From Pyrenula massariospora (taxonomy: Eukaryota; Ascomycota; Eurotiomycetes; Pyrenulales; Pyrenulaceae), in contig JAGFMI010000008.1 of NCBI GenBank assembly GCA_021030905.1, forward strand, positions 806,001 to 870,000: a DNA stretch of 64,000 nt, written 5' to 3'. Positions 2,719 to 55,339 of the stretch are shown one piece after another (positions within the stretch are counted from its first letter, which is position 1; each line of letters begins with the position of its first letter). The notes beneath the pieces were generated by a model. That model searched no databases. It was not told the DNA's origin and saw only the letters and a list, made by a program, of their open reading frames with translations. Position numbers and translations under genes: made by a program.

Positions 2719-5700
2719 ATGTCAGGCCGGGACGAAGACCTCGCTTATGGCGAGGGTTATGGGGCAGATCGGGGACGAGGAACAGAAGGATCCCAAGGTG
2801 GTGAAAAAGGATTCATTGGCGACACCTTCAACAAGTTGCGCGACAAGTATCGTGCATCACAGAATCCCTCTCAGCAACCATATGGACAGAGCCAGCAGCC
2901 ATACGGACAGGGTCAACAACCATATGGACAAGGTCAGCAATCATATGGACAGAGCCAGCAATCGTATGGGCAAAGCCAACAATCCTATGGACAAAACCAG
3001 CAGCCGTATGGGCAAGGTCAACAATCCTACCCACCTCCGTCAGGCCAAGGCAACTACTCGGTAAGCCAGGACAATGACCTATGGCAAAATCTATCACTAA
3101 CACAATTAGGGACAGTCTCAATATCCTGGTGGACTTCCTTCTCAGCCTGCTGGACAGAACCAAAAGCCTGACTTCCTTTCCTCCGTCTTTGACAAAGTCC
3201 ACGGTGCTGTGCATGGACTCGGACAAGACCTGGCTCAAACAGTTGGTGGCCATTACGAACCACCCCATGCCACTCCTTTCGGGTCAGCGACTTATAACAC
3301 GCTCGGAGCGCCCGTGGCAGAAGCTTATGCAAATAACCGGTTCGGAAGTTTCGCTAGTCCAAAGAATAACAATGATGTCAAATGGTTCGTTGATGGGTGC
3401 GGATATATGTGGGCAGTGTCAATAGCACTCGAACGGGCAAGAGAATCAATTTGGATTCTTGACTGGTGGCTTTCACCAGAGCTCTATCTACGGCGTCCAC
3501 CTTCAAGAAATGAGAACTACCGCGTGGACCGGATGCTGCAAGCCGCCGCGCAGCGTGGGGTCAAGGTCAATATCATAGTCTACAAAGAAGTCACTCAAGC
3601 CCTTACTCGTAAGTACATATCCCCGCTACTTCCCGAGTACCTGCATTCGTTGCTCCCTAGAAGTACCGACACATTCACGTCCGCTTTGGTCCGGATGGGG
3701 CTACTAGCCACTACAACTTCTTTGGAGTATATGGAGTCCGAGACCCCGCTGATTGCGCCGCCTGTTACAGTTTCCTCGGCTCATACGAAACATCATCTCG
3801 AGAAACTCCATCCAAATATCGCTGTGTTCAGACATCCGGACCATCTTCCAGATGCACAAACTCTACAGTCATCCCTTGTCTCATCTTTTCAGAACTTGAG
3901 GCTCGACGCAGCTTCAATATCAAAAATGGGTGGTGATACATTGAAGACGTTATACGGAGCCAGTGACGACGTGATACTCTATTGGGCGCATCATGAAAAA
4001 TTATGCGTCGTTGACTCTAAGATTGCTTTCATGGGTGAGTTTGCACTTTTGCCTCTATTTTGAGCTCCGCCATGATCTTCTGCAGTTGAGAGTATAGATT
4101 TGTCGTAAAAGATGAGTGGTTAGGCTAACTGACGAATACAGGTGGCTTGGATCTATGCTATGGCAGATGGGACACAAATCAGCACGCTATCGCAGATGCC
4201 CATCCTAATGATCTTTCAGCAATCGTGTTTCCTGGACAAGATTATAACAACGCACGCATTGCAGATTTCGACGATGTTGCCCATCCAGACCAAAATAAGC
4301 TCAACCGATTGGAAAGCTCACGAATGGGATGGTCAGACATATCTATCAGCCTCGAGGGTCCTGTGGTGCAGGATTTGCGCAAACATTTCGTTGATCGCTG
4401 GAACTTCATCTATGACGAGAAATACAACGTACGCAAGGATGCACGGTATTCAAAATTGTCTTTGTCCGGTCCATATCAGCAGCCCGGTGGTCAACGGCCG
4501 CCCTCATCGCAAGGGCATCTTGCTCCAGGATCGCAAGGACAGTATGGTGTTGGACAAGAGAATTATCGACCGCCTTCGCCCTATCAGAGCTCTAGTACAC
4601 CCCATTCGCCTCAGCCCTCTTGGCAACAACAGCCACAAGGTCAGCAGTTTCCGCCACCTCCTCAAGGCCCTCCTCCACAGGCTCAGGCCCCTCAACCCGG
4701 TTATAATTCACAGCCGGACTACGGATCGCCACCATCGCAATACGGAAATAACCAGCAAACCTCAGGAGCATCTCCAGGATACTATCCGCCACCTCCTACG
4801 CAAGCTACGCGTGGGCTAGAAGATGACTATGCAGGTGGTGAACGCGGCTTTGAGTCTGAACGTGGCTACGGTGGCTCTAGTCGTTTCGCCCAAGAAGGCC
4901 AACGTTTCAGAGCAGAGTTCCAGGGGATAGGAAACGTTCTCCGCGATCAAGCTGAGGATCGCTTTCGATATGCTCAAGGCAAAGTCTTTGGAGGACACGA
5001 CGAACATGGTCGTCCGTTGTCACGCCAGCGGGGATCTATTCCTTGCCAAATTGTACGATCATGCTCGAAATGGAGTCACGGGGTTCCCACTGAGCATTCG
5101 ATCCAAAACGCTTACATTGATATTATCCAGAGAAGCCAGCACTTTGTCTACATTGAGAATCAATTTTTCATTACAGCTACCGGCGACTCTCAGAAGCCGG
5201 TTAAGAACCAGATTGGAAAAGCGATTGTCGAGCGAATCGTACGTGCTTCTCGCAATGGAGAGAGATACAAGGTAGTCGTTGTGATCCCATCTGTACCCGC
5301 ATTTGCTGGTGACTTGAGAGACGATTCTGCTCTAGGTACCAGAGCGATCATGGAGTTCCAGTACAATTCGATCTGTCGAGGTGGGAATTCCATCATGGAA
5401 ATGATCCAAAAGGAGGGTGTCAACCCAATGGATTACATTCGATTTTACAATCTCAGGAACTATGACCGAATTAATGCGAGCGCTGCCATGAGACAAGCTG
5501 AACAACAGAGTGGTGTAAGGTACGAGGACGCGCGCCAGCAACATGATAACATAGTAGGTGCTGGCTTCGGAGGATACGGCGAAAATATACCTGGGTCAAA
5601 TTATAATCCTGGCACACAGTATCAGCAATATCAAAATGCTGCGCAGCATCCACAGCAGGGTGTAAAAGCTGGGAGCGGCCGTTGGGATAGTGTCTCGGAG

Positions 5701-32952: not shown

Positions 32953-33063
32953 ATTGTTCCCTGGAATAGGGATCTTTGTTCTCTAAAGTAGAGATCTTTG
33001 TTCTCTGAGATAGAAATCTTTGTTTTCTGGAGTAGAGATCTTTGTTCCCTGGAGTAGAGATCT
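32953..33063. repeat. 22-bp minisatellite, about five copies
   Basis: Consecutive units begin at 32961, 32983, 33005, 33027 and 33049 with consensus CTGGAGTAGAGATCTTTGTT plus two bases. The last is partial, and a unit tail precedes 32961. It lies about 150 bases upstream of the amidase ATG, so probably in its promoter or leader. Confidence 0.9.
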
Positions 33064-37377: not shown

Positions 37378-37916
37378 ATTAGTTCCGCCCAAGTTTTTGC
37401 CTAACCGAGTCCCGATGCATGACTGAAGAGGGGAGATATCAAAACTTGAGGGATGGCCGTGCTGAGCGTCATTGGCTGCTGAGAGATTTGTAGTTGCAAG
37501 AGATTGAAGGATTCAGATACAACCCTGGCAAGTCACTGAAAACGAGGGCTGCAAATTGACGGGTGAGCGCAGGTGAAAAGCGGCAGTAGAGTATTACCTT
37601 TGATGGTGATAAGGCAGCGAGGATTGGGTGGGAGGAGACGGAGCTCAGCGCACATTTTTATTTTCTTGAGCCGCCATGATGTACGGGCAAGTTGTGAGCT
37701 AAGTAGCTGGTATTATGCATTGCGAAAATCCAAAATGCAAGCGGAAACCAAGAAAGCATAAGAATAAAAATGTAAGACCAGCGGACCGGCCGCGGCTAGG
37801 AGTCACTGATCGCTGCCTGTGTATTAATTGTCTCGGCAGACTACGTCAGGGAATCCTACCTTTGAGTCTGTCAATATAGTATAGTATACGCACTAAATAA
37901 TTTCAGGTGTCTCAGA
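37378..37916. other. Intergenic between the 745-aa gene and tRNA-Met
   Basis: Only short frames. The last bases before the tRNA are AT-rich (CAATATAGTATAGTATACG, 37872-37890), a plausible RNA polymerase III upstream element. Confidence 0.4.
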
Positions 37917-38070
37917 GCTTCTATGGTGTAGTCGGTTATGTTAGTTTATCAGCGAAATCAATAAGACCACAGTCTAACATCGGGGCAGCACGTTGGTCTC
38001 ATATCATACATATGATCTAGCGAAAAGTCTAGGAATCCAAAGGCCGCCAGTTCGATTCTGGCTGGAAGCA
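37917..38070 (+). tRNA. Elongator tRNA-Met (CAT), interrupted in both D-loop and anticodon loop
   Basis: The acceptor strands GCTTCTA (37917-37923) and TGGAAGC (38063-38069) pair over seven bases with one G-U, followed by discriminator A. The D-stem GTGT (37926-37929) pairs with GCAC (37988-37991). The anticodon arm TTGGT-CTCATA...A-TCCAA gives anticodon CAT (38000-38002). The T-arm is GCCAG-TTCGATT-CTGGC. A 31-base intron (38004-38034) sits at the canonical 37/38 position. The D-loop contains about 48-50 extra bases (about 37936-37985), flanked by TCGG on both sides and bounded inside by the inverted repeat ATGTTAG (37938-37944) / CTAACAT (37974-37980). With both inserts removed, a standard elongator tRNA-Met remains. 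A T-run (TTTTT, 38088-38092) follows and could terminate transcription. Whether the D-loop insert is a spliced intron or an inactivating insertion is open. Confidence 0.8.
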
Positions 38071-38434
38071 ACAATAATGGAGTGAACTTTTTGTCTCCCT
38101 TTTTGGGTGTATTTTCCTTTTGGGATTCAAACTAGATTCGGAAGAGTGCATGTAGGCGCGCTCTGTGGGCGCAGAGCTAATCAACGATTGAAGCCAAGGC
38201 ACCCCAACCCATCCGGACAGCCTTGACCGATTTTCGATCAACCATTTGATTGCTATTACTAGCGCAGTCCGACGCACATTAGACGCGCCACGGTATCTGA
38301 TAACTATCTAGCCCCGCCACGGAAGAGCTCTAAGACCGCAAGCAAGAGAGCCCCGAAACTGGGGAAACCCGAAAGAAAAGCCGAGACACCTTCGCGCAGT
38401 CATTTTTGCATCGTGAGGACCTAGAGACATAGCA
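38071..38434. other. Intergenic between tRNA-Met and the lysine-rich gene
   Basis: It contains the tRNA terminator-like T-run and the 3' flank of the minus-strand lysine-rich gene. No other feature is seen. Confidence 0.4.
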
Positions 38435-49144: not shown

Positions 49145-52100
49145 TCAAAGCCCATTCTCAACCTCCTCAAAATCAACATCAACGCCCTCCTCCCCCACCG
49201 CTTCAACACCCCGCCGCCAACCCTCGACCCTCCCCATAGCACATTCCTCCCTCTCCCTCAACACACCCAACGCCTTCAACCGTCCCCAAACCCCATCCAA
49301 CCCCACCACCCCCTCCCCCTCCCCCTCCCCCACCCCGGGCCGCCACTCCCGTCCATCCACCCACCCCAGCCCCCGACAATTCTCCTTCAACAACAACTCC
49401 CACACCCTCCTCCTCATCCGCGTCCCCTCATCCAGCCTCCCCACCCACTTCTCATCCGCCCCCACATCCATGTCCGGCAGCGTATACGGATCCCTTAACT
49501 CCTTCTTCTCCCCTCTCTCCCCCCCAACCGCCGCATCTCCCCTCCTCACAACCACAACCCCTTTTTCCCTCCCCTTCCCCTCCCCCCAACCCGTCCCAAT
49601 CGGCGCATAAAACCCCGCCGTAACCCCACACCCCCTAAAATCCACCTTCCCCAGCCTGCCGCCGCCCAACGCCCCCAGCGCAACCGCCCCCCTCCTCAAT
49701 CTTCCCACGCGATTCCCCGCCATAAGCAGCCTCCCCAACCTTCCCGCCCCCTTAAGCTTCGCTATATCCCGCTCAGTCAGCGCATTGAAATTCACATTCA
49801 AAACTCGCACGTTGGGAATGCGGTGCCCGAAGCGCTCCGGCAGCGCGCTGAGGCCGCACGACGCGAGCTCGAGGTACTGCAGGTTCGACCAGCCGGGCGC
49901 GGGCGGGGCGGGGAGACCGCAACCGGACGACGGGGGGGGTTGGTTGCCGGAGAGGTAGAGTTTGCGGAGGTTGTGGGGGGTGCGGAAGATGGTGCACAAG
50001 AGGTCGGGGGAGTGGGATTGTTCGCGTAACGACAAGGTTTGGAGGGCGCGGGATTGGGAAAGGCCCGGGAGGGAGGTGATGAGGTTGTTGTCTAGGTAGA
50101 GGAGGGAGAGGGATGGGAGGGGGGGGAGGGGGAGGGTGGTGAGGGCGTTGTGGGAGAGTTTGAGGGTTTGGAGGTTCTTGAGGGGGGCGGGAGGGGAGAA
50201 GGTGGTGAGGTTGTTGGCTTCGAGGTCGAGGTGGGTGAGGGAGGGGAGGTGGTGGAGGTTCTGGATTGATGTGAGGGTGTTGTTGCTGAGGTCGAGGTGG
50301 GTGAGGCGGTGCAGCTCGCTGCCCTCAAAGTCTACGGAATAGAGTTTATTGCCGCGGAGTTGCAGACTAAGCAGGCCATCCAAGTCGAGGATCCCGTCGA
50401 TGTCGCGGATTTGGTTCCCATTCGCACGCAATTCGCGGAGGTGGATGAGACTGCTGAATCCTTCAAGGCTCTCCAACTCGTTGCCGGATATGTCGAGGTA
50501 CTGAAGATTGTGAAGTGTACCCCAGGAAGTGAGGTTTGTGAGGTAGTTTCGTTGAATTGTCAATGTTCGTACAGAGCGAGGCACCCCACTTAGCTGGGCG
50601 ATCTTGTTGTTGGATGCATCGAGCTGTTCCAGGTTTGTGCAATATTCTTGGAGCCTGTGAAGCGTTGTTAAGCTCTTGCCTGTCAGTTGGAGACGGCGGA
50701 GGTGGTCCCAGTATGGCTCATATGGCTCCATGTCGGTGATGGCTTTCATTAGATCATCTACAGCCAAGGCAAGCTGGCCATGAGCTTGTTGTAATGATGT
50801 CGGATGTGCTCGCTGCGCAACGTAGCTTAGCTCAAGATGCACTGGGTCGTCAACCTGGTGGAACGTGAATTCAGACAAAGGTGTGAGACAGATCAAGCTC
50901 GAGTCTTTTCCAGCAGTAGGAGGTGCAATCATGCTGTTCATTTGGCGTTGAGGAGCCGGCGTCACAGCGCCAACAGAGTCGCTGATATGAATGAGACTCA
51001 TTTCGTTATTTAATGCGTCCTCATCCTGCTCGTCGATCCTGGATACAGGTCGTGCAACAAAATCCATCATGGCGGACTTCCGTCTAGGTGCTAAAGGGGC
51101 AGATACTTTCCTGACCGACTGCGAGCGAGCTGCTGTAGCCAGCTCATCTCTTGACTGCTGTCCAGACGAGTCGTTTAGGAATGCAACATCCTCTAAAGAT
51201 ACTCGGTCATCTGTCTGCGTAGTAGACGTCGAAGCAGAGCGATCGTGCTGGTACACTACACCAGAGACCAAAGGAGATGAGAACTGAATCGTTACAACAC
51301 GTGGTTGTTTGCTCCCACTGTCAGGACTGCCCGGAACTCGGGAGACGCGGCCTTCATTGATCCGGATTTCGTGCTCGGCCTCTTCTGATTGCTGACTTTT
51401 ACGCACATGATCGTTGACCTTAGCTCTATTGTTCTTTGCTTCCCGTTCCTCCACGGCCAAGGACGTTGCACGGGTATCTATGACAGGAGCTGTCGAATCT
51501 TCGTGCGTGAATTTGGAAGGGGCCGGACTTGTGTCCGATGACAGGACATGTTCATCTTCTCGTTTGTGCGTTCGAGGCTGTAACGGCGGCCTTGGCTTGC
51601 TTTCTGCGTCTCGGTCTGGAGACAAGCCATCAACGTATTTGAGAGGCGAAGTGCGAGAAGGTGACGGAAACAGTCGAGCCCTCTCCTGAGCCTCATCAAC
51701 ACTTAGATCTGGGATGTCTCCAAAAGGATCATCTTCAATCCTCGATGCACGAGCCTCTCCATCAGCTGATTCATGAGAGCCGGCCTTGCTTCTCACCCAG
51801 GATTTAGTAGCCTGATCAAAAGTCATATGTCCAAGCTGCTCAGGTATAGCAAGCTTGCCTGGACGTATGACACCTTTCTGGCCAGAACTTTTGGATGAAT
51901 TAGTCGGAAAAGATTGACCCGTAAGGACACCGGATGAGCTTTGAGTTTGAAGCGTATTGCGCCGAGGAGAGGCTTCTGCATCGGCTGTGGAGCCAGAATG
52001 TTTTCGTTTTCTTTCTTGCTCCAAACTGTCTCTAATTCGGATATTGGCTGGGCTCGAGCTTACTTCAGATCCTTGGTCATTTGATGGCGGAGGAGATTTT

Positions 52101-54886
52101 GGCCGCGGATCCCGGATTTTCAGTGATGTGATCGAAGATTGTAATCCAGCAATTTGATCATCTTCATCCGCATATTTGCGGAGATGCGAAATGACTCGCG
52201 GATCCTGATTAATCTGCCCCTGCACCTTAGGACCACCTCCTTCACGGCTCGGCGGCCTTGAAAAGTTTTCTCTTGTCGACTCCGCGTAGTCTTCAGACTT
52301 AAGCTCGCTCTCTTCACTTTCGTTTTCAGGCTCTGGCAGAATTTCCAAGGCAGCTTTTTGCTTCCCCTTCTCCCGTATCAAGGCCATGATTTTCGTGGCC
52401 TCATTAAGAAAATCTTGGGTCGTTACAGACTTCTTGCGCGTTTCATTTGCCATTGTGGAGATATCTGCGCCTGCGGAGGCCAGCTCTTGTGTAACAACGG
52501 AGACCATCTGCTCATCTGCAGCGGACAGCCCGGGGCCATCTTGGCCTTCATCATGCGTAAGTTGGTCCCTAGCATTTCTTACTAAGTTTATTTTTCCTGA
52601 AGATAGCCGCTGGGCTGTCTTCGGCCGAAGTATCTGTCTTGCAGCTAGGGTTTGAGGATCTGCCATCGATTCAGCATTGTCGTATCTGGCATCCTTTCTC
52701 TTCTTGCCAGCAAGCTGCACACGGTCTGAAGGCTGGTCCTGAGGAGTGGCTATGTCTTGGAAGCGTAAAGCTGGATCGGCGTCCTCCCCTAAGAGAGTTC
52801 TCCTTCTCTTGGGCGTCCGGTCTTTACCTGGAGATTTAAGCGTTCGTTTGTACTCATGAACTTTGATTTCCGTCCGCGTCTCTTCTCTTAAATCTGTCTT
52901 GCGAACCTCCAGCTGGGTAGCCATTACCTCTTGTCTTGAGCCAGACTGATTCTTTCTTGTCTTGGGTAAGCTTGTGGATTTAAATCGCATGATATCTCCA
53001 TCAAAAATGCCCTCGGGGGTGACATCGGGTGAGTAATCGAAGATTTGGTCCTCCACTTGAACTCGCTTGGCTGAGACAGATGAACTTCTTGAAACGGTTT
53101 GTGTGAAAGGGTGATTGTCGAGATCACCATTGCCGAATTGGCTGAGGCGCCTAGAGTGTGACGGAGTTGGAGTGTGAGGTCGGGATGGAAATTCTTGTAC
53201 TGATCGATTTGCTTTGGGTGCTATTGTGGTAGCATCTCTGGATTCTAAAGTTTGCTTGGGGGATTTTTTGTCAATTGGCTCATCGGAATCGTCCTCAAAT
53301 TGGCCAATGCGAGTCAATAATCTTTTATTTGTGAAGGTGTCATAGTTTCCAAAGAGCTTGAGCGGACTTCCAGGGGACTTGGTAGGACTTGGTGTTGAAT
53401 CTAATAGTTGGCTCCTCTGACTGCTTGGTGTTTCGAGCCCCTCTCCATTGTTTGAAATCTGAGAATCCTCCAGCGTTGTTTGGCCCTTCACATATGGAGG
53501 CGGAGAGCTCCTGAATTGTAAGCTTGACAGCTCAGATACCTGATCTTTTCGTGGCGGCATGGACGAAGAGCTCAACTTTCTTCGAAGAAAGGAAGTATCT
53601 TTTGAATATCCTCCTCTCTTTACACTGACGAACCCACCTCTGGCCACAAAGTCCTGAGTTCCCATAGATAAATCATCAGGCAAAGAGTTGCTTGTTAGAT
53701 CAGCAAGGAAGTCACTTTCGTTGTTAGGATGACCCATGATTGAATTTTCTCTTTCATGAAGAGCTGAGTCGCTCAGCGGCGAACAAGGTCTTTTTGCTTG
53801 CGAATACAAGCTCCCAGAAACAGTGCGTGGCGAATGATGAAATTCGCCGCTATCGAAGCGTCTCTTGTATTGTTTCTGCAATGTGTTGGTTTTGGATAGA
53901 GTAATTGGGCTGATTTCTTCGTTCCTTATCTCCTCCACGCCTGATATGGTCCTTAATCGAGGATCATTTTTGAGATTATCGGAAACAAGGCCCAGGCCAC
54001 TTAGTGAACGCGGTGAGCGCTTAGGTGATGCTTTGCTTCGGATAACGCTTGTATCTTCCTCAGAATGCTTCAAAGACCCTTCAGGCTCGAGAATCGCCTC
54101 ATTTATAGAACCTCCTAATAAATTGAGACTATGCTCTTCTTCACTCTCCTCTCGGACTGTTTCCATTTCCGGCCCTCTTGTTCGCGATGCACGCATGCTT
54201 TGTTGCGATTGCCTGAAGTCGATATTTGACCCTGACGAGCTCAACGGCAAGGACCAGGGCTTGGAGCTATCTGTTGATCCATGTGCGCCATGCTCTGCCG
54301 GAGCAGAGGACGCCTTTGGCTGCTGAAAGATACCCTCCAATTTGGAAGGCGCAAACAAATCTGCTGCAGCATCCCCCGCATTGTCACCACTCAAAAGCCT
54401 CCTCTTCCACTCGGGCGTTGTGCCTTGGTCTTTTCGTGGTGATGTATTGTGAAGAGTTCGGTGCTGGACGGACTGTAGAGAATTCGAGAATGATGCGCCA
54501 GACGCTCGTCTCGGCAAGGACGATGCAGTATAGCGATTCGCTTTTCTACCTTCATCTCCGTTCTCTTTTGCGATAGATGACTTGCGCTTAGGACTTTCAG
54601 ATGCCTGGTTGGCAATGTTCAGCTGGGAAGATGAATGCTCGCTTAGGACCGGGGATCGTTTAGAACGTGCGAGTCCCTTTTGCGATCGAGGTCTAAGGTA
54701 GTTCGTCTTCGTGCTCCCTTCTTTAGATGTTTGAGAAGCTCGAGGTATGCGGCTCCTCGTAGAACTGCTGTTGATGCTGGAACGGGGGGGAGGGTCTGGT
54801 TCGCCACGAGGTAGAGAGACGGAAGACGAGAAGCGCTCAGACTTCCAATCTTCGTCGAGGTTCTCGAGCCATGGTTCTTTGGCCAT
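49145..54886 (-). CDS. cdc11: Cdc11/Nud1-like LRR scaffold of the septation initiation network
   Basis: A single-exon 1913-aa protein. ATG 54886 (MAKEPWLENLDEDW) is the first in the frame, which is open to TTG 54976. The first about 1390 residues are disordered and Ser/Pro/Lys-rich, with many SP/TP sites (DSTPSPTKSPGSP) expected of a kinase-regulated scaffold. About 1395-1750 are leucine-rich repeats of the SDS22-like type (LQYLDISGNELESLEG; LRELRANGNQIRDI; LTHLDLSNNTLTSI). This disordered-N-terminus, LRR-C-terminus plan at this length matches Cdc11/Nud1, which anchors septation/mitotic-exit proteins at the spindle pole body. In the LRR region the coding strand is C-rich; after about 49870 it flips to G-rich and the tail becomes Gly/Arg/Val-rich. 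Confidence 0.82.
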   Translation of the reverse strand: MAKEPWLENLDEDWKSERFSSSVSLPRGEPDPPPRSSINSSSTRSRIPRASQTSKEGSTKTNYLRPRSQKGLARSKRSPVLSEHSSSQLNIANQASESPKRKSSIAKENGDEGRKANRYTASSLPRRASGASFSNSLQSVQHRTLHNTSPRKDQGTTPEWKRRLLSGDNAGDAAADLFAPSKLEGIFQQPKASSAPAEHGAHGSTDSSKPWSLPLSSSGSNIDFRQSQQSMRASRTRGPEMETVREESEEEHSLNLLGGSINEAILEPEGSLKHSEEDTSVIRSKASPKRSPRSLSGLGLVSDNLKNDPRLRTISGVEEIRNEEISPITLSKTNTLQKQYKRRFDSGEFHHSPRTVSGSLYSQAKRPCSPLSDSALHERENSIMGHPNNESDFLADLTSNSLPDDLSMGTQDFVARGGFVSVKRGGYSKDTSFLRRKLSSSSMPPRKDQVSELSSLQFRSSPPPYVKGQTTLEDSQISNNGEGLETPSSQRSQLLDSTPSPTKSPGSPLKLFGNYDTFTNKRLLTRIGQFEDDSDEPIDKKSPKQTLESRDATTIAPKANRSVQEFPSRPHTPTPSHSRRLSQFGNGDLDNHPFTQTVSRSSSVSAKRVQVEDQIFDYSPDVTPEGIFDGDIMRFKSTSLPKTRKNQSGSRQEVMATQLEVRKTDLREETRTEIKVHEYKRTLKSPGKDRTPKRRRTLLGEDADPALRFQDIATPQDQPSDRVQLAGKKRKDARYDNAESMADPQTLAARQILRPKTAQRLSSGKINLVRNARDQLTHDEGQDGPGLSAADEQMVSVVTQELASAGADISTMANETRKKSVTTQDFLNEATKIMALIREKGKQKAALEILPEPENESEESELKSEDYAESTRENFSRPPSREGGGPKVQGQINQDPRVISHLRKYADEDDQIAGLQSSITSLKIRDPRPKSPPPSNDQGSEVSSSPANIRIRDSLEQERKRKHSGSTADAEASPRRNTLQTQSSSGVLTGQSFPTNSSKSSGQKGVIRPGKLAIPEQLGHMTFDQATKSWVRSKAGSHESADGEARASRIEDDPFGDIPDLSVDEAQERARLFPSPSRTSPLKYVDGLSPDRDAESKPRPPLQPRTHKREDEHVLSSDTSPAPSKFTHEDSTAPVIDTRATSLAVEEREAKNNRAKVNDHVRKSQQSEEAEHEIRINEGRVSRVPGSPDSGSKQPRVVTIQFSSPLVSGVVYQHDRSASTSTTQTDDRVSLEDVAFLNDSSGQQSRDELATAARSQSVRKVSAPLAPRRKSAMMDFVARPVSRIDEQDEDALNNEMSLIHISDSVGAVTPAPQRQMNSMIAPPTAGKDSSLICLTPLSEFTFHQVDDPVHLELSYVAQRAHPTSLQQAHGQLALAVDDLMKAITDMEPYEPYWDHLRRLQLTGKSLTTLHRLQEYCTNLEQLDASNNKIAQLSGVPRSVRTLTIQRNYLTNLTSWGTLHNLQYLDISGNELESLEGFSSLIHLRELRANGNQIRDIDGILDLDGLLSLQLRGNKLYSVDFEGSELHRLTHLDLSNNTLTSIQNLHHLPSLTHLDLEANNLTTFSPPAPLKNLQTLKLSHNALTTLPLPPLPSLSLLYLDNNLITSLPGLSQSRALQTLSLREQSHSPDLLCTIFRTPHNLRKLYLSGNQPPPSSGCGLPAPPAPGWSNLQYLELASCGLSALPERFGHRIPNVRVLNVNFNALTERDIAKLKGAGRLGRLLMAGNRVGRLRRGAVALGALGGGRLGKVDFRGCGVTAGFYAPIGTGWGEGKGREKGVVVVRRGDAAVGGERGEKKELRDPYTLPDMDVGADEKWVGRLDEGTRMRRRVWELLLKENCRGLGWVDGREWRPGVGEGEGEGVVGLDGVWGRLKALGVLREREECAMGRVEGWRRGVEAVGEEGVDVDFEEVENGL

Positions 54887-55339
54887 TGTAGGCAAGAGAA
54901 GCTGGGGTGGGTGAAGGCTGGAGGGATTCGATTGCTTCCGCTGGAGAGGTGCAAGGCTCGGGAAGTCTTCTAACAATGAAAGCGTCCATAAATATACAGC
55001 GTACGGATCTTAATATTTCATAGCGTATCGAATTCGAGGGAAGGTCGTCTTCTGATCCAATTTCACGGGCTTGGTGTTGGTTTCTCGTGTCGGAGAATTC
55101 GCGACCCCCGCAATTCGGAAAGTGCTCTCCAATGGATCGTTGTTTACGTTTGTCTGTTTAGGGTAATTCTCGCGTCATCGTTTCTCCGGATCCGGCAGAG
55201 CAATCGCAGAAGACAACCCTCCATCATGTTTGAAAGCAACCTTTCCAGCTACCAAAAGATAATTCGCAATTTGATTTCAGTAATGCTAGAGATGAAAAAA
55301 TGAACGCTTCGCTGGGTATCATTTCTATCGGTAGACGTT
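54887..55339. other. Intergenic between vps11 and cdc11-like gene
   Basis: About 450 bases containing the 3' flank of vps11 and the promoter of the LRR scaffold gene, both minus strand. No further feature is seen. Confidence 0.45.

What the first reader, a model, noticed from the sequence alone, without database searches (positions are those of the whole stretch)
37917..38070. Elongator tRNA-Met carrying a D-loop insertion besides the usual anticodon intron
Seen: acceptor, D, anticodon and T arms of a CAT tRNA all pair, but only if two segments are removed. One is a 31-base intron at position 37/38, standard in fungi. The other is about 48-50 bases inside the D-loop, flanked by TCGG at both ends and with internal inverted repeat ATGTTAG/CTAACAT that would form a 7-bp hairpin. 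Known: nuclear tRNA introns are normally at 37/38; D-loop (ectopic) introns are known chiefly from red algae and archaea. Inference: it is either an ectopic tRNA intron in a fungus, or a miniature insertion with a 4-bp target duplication that turned this copy into a pseudogene. The conserved flanking arms argue for recent insertion or for removal during maturation.
Basis: partly seen in the sequence, partly recalled or inferred. Interest (0 to 1): 0.8.

Follow-up and report, generated by a model that had tools for sequence, protein, structure and literature searches.

The report
Fungal tRNA-Met gene with D-loop insert
An otherwise complete methionine tRNA gene, apparently of a fungus, carries about 48-50 extra bases in a second loop besides its usual small intron; it is more probably a copy disabled by an insertion than a new kind of fungal tRNA intron, and sequencing the RNA would tell.

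Summary
Window 37917-38070 encodes an elongator tRNA-Met (CAT): 20 of 20 tested stem pairs form, with A and B boxes, upstream TATA motifs and a T5 run. A 31-nt intron (38004-38034) sits at 37/38. Another 48-50 nt sit in the D-loop near position 20/21. Scans of the intact window miss or misname the gene.

The interpretation cannot be settled here. The 7-bp hairpin is mildly unusual (38 of 2000 shuffles). The TCGG repeat is unremarkable once the boundary is free (22% of 5000 shuffles). No strict bulge-helix-bulge lies at a usable site; a post hoc 3-4-2 form is a minor fold. No genome is held and no fungal relative was found, so copies could not be counted.

[quoted passage not shown] A confirmed second intron would be notable.

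The parts
37917..38070 (+). elongator tRNA-Met (CAT) gene with two interrupting segments
   Evidence: 20 of 20 stem pairs standard; ARAGORN tRNA-Met(cat) with both segments removed, three boundary choices
37875..37888 (+). three TATA motifs (37875, 37880, 37885) upstream, possible TFIIIB site
   Evidence: pattern found by script; role inferred
37924..37935 (+). A box TGGTGTAGTCGG, uninterrupted, ends where the D-loop segment begins
   Evidence: consensus match; consensus recalled
37936..37983 (+). extra D-loop segment of 48 nt (49 or 50 nt with boundaries 37939-37987 or 37937-37986)
37938..37980 (+). 7-bp hairpin ATGTTAG/CTAACAT in the segment
38000..38002 (+). anticodon CAT
   Evidence: position; ARAGORN anticodon
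38004..38034 (+). 37/38 intron, 31 nt
   Evidence: coordinates; used
38050..38058 (+). B box core GTTCGATTC
   Evidence: consensus recalled
38088..38092 (+). T5 run, likely Pol III terminator
   Evidence: role inferred

Best explanation
One copy of an ordinary intron-containing fungal elongator tRNA-Met gene in which about 48 nt of unrelated DNA entered the D-loop just behind the A box, probably not long ago. Pol III could still transcribe it because both internal promoter boxes are whole. The product should not become a working tRNA, since the D-loop segment is not expected to be cut out by a fungal splicing endonuclease and may disturb removal of the 37/38 intron. Shown: the anatomy. Inferred: transcription, lack of removal, recent origin, existence of other intact copies, and the fungal host.
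For: No strict 3-4-3 bulge-helix-bulge at a site that would give a normal D-loop: 0 found, as in 98.45% of 2000 shuffles. The D-arm folds instead as D-stem plus a 3-bp and the 7-bp helix; the BHB-like central helix has pair probabilities of 1-4% on the D-arm alone and 2-6% in the whole precursor. D-arm folding energy is ordinary against 500 shuffles, z = -0.55. A review says that short insertions in D or T arms of eukaryotic tRNA genes are mostly found in one of many synonymous genes and are supposed to be pseudogenes (PMC4090602, passage); another says that the yeast endonuclease strictly cleaves at 37/38 (PMC4033280, passage); [quoted passage not shown] The TCGG repeat at the fixed boundary (0.5% of 20000 shuffles) would suit a DNA-level insertion.
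Against: Nothing tested in the rest of the gene looks decayed: 20 of 20 pairs, A and B boxes, TATA motifs, T5 run, intron in place. The segment sits near 20/21, an intron site in archaea and a junction in a C. merolae permuted gene. Its G+C (35.4%) equals that of the 37/38 intron (35.5%) against 54.7% for the body. No intact copy was shown, because no genome is held. The forced cloverleaf lies 4.8 kcal/mol above the minimum with the segment and 3.4-4.9 above without it (intron kept), so the segment is not shown to cause misfolding. With free boundaries the TCGG repeat is not unusual (22% of 5000).
Confidence: 0.62

Rival explanations
1. A genuine second tRNA intron. The D-loop segment is cut out of the precursor near position 20/21, probably by the tRNA splicing endonuclease acting on a relaxed structure (D-stem, short helix, internal loop GGTT/CGG, intron hairpin), and the ends are ligated; the 37/38 intron leaves in the usual way.
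For: Intact body and Pol III signals; site 20/21 known for archaeal introns (PMC4090602) and as the D-loop junction of a C. merolae permuted gene (PMC3978253); G+C like the 37/38 intron; three boundary choices leave a tRNA-Met by ARAGORN; a 3-4-2 BHB-like fold at the right site arises in 0.95% of 2000 shuffles. [quoted passage not shown]
Against: The 3-4-2 class was defined after seeing the sequence, contains two G.U pairs (one in the central helix, one in the outer), and is a minor fold. With a wider BHB definition 31.5% of 2000 shuffles have at least one hit; 4 hits were observed, reached by 3.85% of shuffles. Cutting at the archaeal place in its bulges would leave a D-loop of about 12 nt (inferred). 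ARAGORN is lenient: 19 of 40 start positions of a 48-nt deletion give tRNA-Met. A tRNAscan-SE 2.0 passage says eukaryotic tRNA genes are limited to one intron (PMC8450103).
Confidence: 0.3
2. A miniature mobile element with a 4-bp TCGG target duplication in the tRNA gene.
For: TCGG at both ends and a 7-bp inverted repeat near the ends.
Against: Elsewhere in the 64-kb window the longest match to the segment is 11 nt (E = 0.47); one exact 20-nt pattern had no hit in IMG/VR. The inverted repeats are offset and one overlaps the TCGG. The repeat is not significant with free boundaries. I recall no transposon family with such ends and a 4-bp TCGG duplication.
Confidence: 0.06
3. The segment arose by direct or inverted duplication of parts of the tRNA gene itself (slippage or template switching).
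For: Shared AGCGAAA with the 37/38 intron and an 8 of 9 inverted match to the anticodon arm.
Against: Local alignment scores are within chance: forward p = 0.22, reverse p = 0.49 (2000 shuffles each).
Confidence: 0.02

Closest known systems
Eukaryotic tRNA genes with D- or T-arm insertions taken for pseudogenes (PMC4090602, passage)
   Same: Extra segment in an otherwise recognisable nuclear tRNA gene
   Different: Here the tested remainder of the gene is intact, and the number of sister copies is unknown
Ectopic introns of Cyanidioschyzon merolae and of nucleomorph tRNA genes (PMC4090602, PMC3978253, PMC9602550; passages)
   Same: Extra D-arm segment together with a 37/38 intron in one gene
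   Different: Excision in G. theta was confirmed by sequencing RT-PCR products and its insertions are 3-24 nt; the C. merolae tRNA-Ile D-arm intron is at 12/13; here there is no RNA evidence, no strict BHB, and the host appears to be a fungus
Archaeal non-canonical tRNA introns (PMC4090602, PMC8450103; passages)
   Same: Site 20/21 and co-occurrence with a 37/38 intron
   Different: Archaeal ones have BHB or relaxed motifs; a strict one was not found here

Membership tests
Elongator tRNA-Met gene | Cloverleaf with CAT anticodon after removal of the segments | tested here: met
   20 of 20 pairs; ARAGORN Met(cat) for three boundary choices
Elongator tRNA-Met gene | Elongator not initiator: G1-C72 and T54 (recalled initiator marks are A1-U72 and A54) | tested here: met
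   37917 G / 38069 C; T-loop TTCGATT
Nuclear tRNA with 37/38 intron | Intron one base 3' of the anticodon | tested here: met
   31 nt at 38004-38034; its removal in RNA not tested
Ectopic (non-canonical) tRNA intron | Bulge-helix-bulge at exon-intron junctions | tested here: inconclusive
   strict 3-4-3: none at a usable site; post hoc 3-4-2: one, minor fold
Ectopic (non-canonical) tRNA intron | Removed in the mature RNA | not testable with these tools
   no RNA data
tRNA pseudogene | Other intact copies serve the same codon | not testable with these tools
   no genome held; the default-threshold intron-aware scan shows one tRNA-like gene in the window, this one, miscalled as His
Transposable element insertion | Further copies of the unit | tested here: inconclusive
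   none in the window and no hit for one exact pattern in IMG/VR; the rest of the genome could not be searched

The most novel reading that the evidence does not exclude
A fungal nuclear tRNA gene with two introns, one of them ectopic in the D-loop at 20/21 and removed from an internal-loop structure without a strict bulge-helix-bulge, which would mean that a fungal splicing system accepts a site that the yeast enzyme is held not to cut.
Probability: 0.3. Interest if true: 0.78.

Novelty: new member of a known kind. Interest (0 to 1): 0.42.

Why it matters
If the segment is spliced, fungi join red algae, nucleomorphs and archaea as hosts of D-arm tRNA introns, and the ruler model of the eukaryotic endonuclease, which ties cutting to position 37/38, would need an exception that can be tested in a tractable kingdom. 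If it is a disabled copy, it is a clean, seemingly recent tRNA gene inactivation that the scanners run here miss or misread.

Tried and rejected
Comparison with relatives failed. Patterns built from the gene had no hit in viral contigs or genome contigs. A looser anticodon-arm pattern had 7 hits in genome contigs, none called a tRNA by ARAGORN, and 3 in viral contigs, all three tRNA-Met genes without such a D-loop segment and with other arms. The VPS11 protein found no relative in viral contigs. Region 37850-38130 had no match in plasmids or phages. None of these collections is meant to hold fungi, so the misses say little.

Rfam gave no match at gathering score in the window; on the local stretch the tRNA family matched at 14 bits against a cut-off of 29, in the wrong register, beside two other sub-threshold matches. 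ARAGORN with introns allowed miscalled the gene as tRNA-His(atg), also after the D-loop segment alone was removed; a run at 60% threshold numbered 400 calls for the window and was dropped as noise. A bacterial promoter and terminator scan does not apply to Pol III. The same-gene duplication idea was rejected on shuffles.

Errors of my own: one search placed the D-stem's 3' strand and the anticodon stem out of register by one base, so its forced-cloverleaf energies are not used; one search repeats them correctly. The general BHB scan does not depend on this: its one strict hit, at 37941, would leave an overlong D-loop, and 18% of 500 shuffles have such a hit; its two wider settings gave 2 and 21 hits, reached by 57.6% and 30.2% of shuffles. 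One search took the intron as 38005-38035 instead of 38004-38034 for one BLAST query.

No listed title or abstract start reports D-loop introns in fungal nuclear tRNA genes. Three lists were cut: 20 of 22, 20 of 197 and 20 of 7,000. The library holds open-licence papers only, and I read passages of five papers, so this is not proof of absence.

Full report
What is there. The sequence at 37917-38070 is an elongator tRNA-Met gene on the + strand. Acceptor stem, D-stem, anticodon stem (27-30/40-43) and T-stem give 20 of 20 standard pairs; pair 31/39 is T.T, which I recall as usual in elongator tRNA-Met. The anticodon CAT is at 38000-38002. A 31-nt intron, 38004-38034, lies one base behind it. The A box TGGTGTAGTCGG (37924-37935) and the B box core (38050-38058) are whole. 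Three TATA motifs start 32, 37 and 42 bases upstream, and a T5 run begins 18 bases past the last base. The roles of these signals are inferred from known Pol III genes.

The D-loop segment. Between the A box and the 3' half of the D-stem lie about 48 extra bases. The boundary is not fixed by the sequence: removing 37936-37983 (48 nt), 37939-37987 (49) or 37937-37986 (50) each leaves a tRNA-Met(cat) for ARAGORN when the 37/38 intron is removed too. Removing only that intron gives no call. Removing only the D-loop segment gives Met(cat) with a 31-nt intron when introns of 20-60 nt are allowed, but a tRNA-His reading when 0-300 nt are allowed. A scan of 40 start positions for a 48-nt deletion gave Met(cat) for 19 (37929-37947), other calls for 9 and none for 12, so ARAGORN alone is lenient and does not fix the boundary. 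On the intact window ARAGORN finds nothing or a false tRNA-His, and Rfam's tRNA family stays below threshold.

Is it more than chance? A 7-bp Watson-Crick stem is reached in 38 of 2000 dinucleotide shuffles, and one near both ends in 11 of 5000; the second measure was defined after seeing the structure. The D-arm's folding energy is ordinary (z = -0.55, 500 shuffles). The TCGG repeat is reached in 0.5% of 20000 shuffles at the fixed boundary but in 22% of 5000 with free boundaries. The segment is as poor in G+C (35.4%) as the 37/38 intron (35.5%); 4.0% of 48-nt stretches of the window are that low. It does not resemble the rest of the gene (p = 0.22 and 0.49), and its longest match elsewhere in the window is 11 nt.

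Could it be spliced? A strict 3-4-3 bulge-helix-bulge that would leave a normal D-loop is absent; 1.55% of 2000 shuffles have one. A 3-4-2 form exists: CGGT/ATCG as central helix, TAT and GG as bulges. It occurs in 0.95% of 2000 shuffles, but this class was chosen after seeing it; a wider class has at least one hit in 31.5% of shuffles, and the observed four hits are reached in 3.85%. Its central helix has pair probabilities of 1-4% on the isolated D-arm. The favoured fold of the D-arm is D-stem, a 3-bp helix, an internal loop and the 7-bp hairpin. In the whole precursor the forced cloverleaf is 4.8 kcal/mol above the minimum, and D-stem and anticodon-stem pairs have probabilities of only 3-5%. 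With the segment removed and the intron kept the gap is 3.4-4.9, with both removed 2.8-3.9, so no special folding defect can be blamed on the segment.

What is known (passages only). PMC4090602: D- or T-arm insertions in eukaryotic tRNA genes are mostly found in one of many synonymous genes and are supposed to be pseudogenes; exceptions named there are nucleomorphs and C. merolae; G. theta elongator tRNA-Met has three introns; archaeal introns occur at 20/21 among other sites. PMC3978253: a 20/21 D-loop junction exists in one C. merolae permuted gene, and many G. [quoted passage not shown] PMC9602550: C. merolae tRNA-Ile(UAU) has introns in D-arm (12/13), anticodon loop and T-arm. PMC8450103: eukaryotic tRNA genes are limited to one intron. 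PMC4033280: the yeast endonuclease strictly cuts at 37/38.

Host. The window codes for a PEP5/VPS11-type protein and a protein kinase C-type kinase. Both frames start or stop inside a domain, as expected if spliceosomal introns split them. I infer a fungus, probably a filamentous ascomycete, partly from recall; no call names the organism, and no genome is held.

Judgement. Without gene copies, relatives or RNA, the choice rests on priors and anatomy. The prior and the missing strict BHB favour a recently disrupted copy (0.62). The intact remainder, the site near 20/21 and the intron-like composition keep a true ectopic intron at 0.30.

Noticed in passing
37961-37969 and 37994-38002: ATAAGACCA in the D-loop segment is complementary in 8 of 9 bases to the 5' side of the anticodon arm including the anticodon; such a pairing has predicted probability of at most 0.002 per pair in the precursor.
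   Followed up: partly
37951-37957 and 38019-38025: AGCGAAA occurs in both the D-loop segment and the 37/38 intron; the longer alignment is within chance (p = 0.22).
   Followed up: yes
32954-33063: Tandem array of about five copies of a 22-bp unit, TTGTTCTCTGGAGTAGAGATCT.
   Followed up: no
2872-3015: 21-bp tandem repeat array of about 7 copies.
   Followed up: no
49145-54976: 1943-aa open frame with leucine-rich repeats in its C-terminal part.
   Followed up: no
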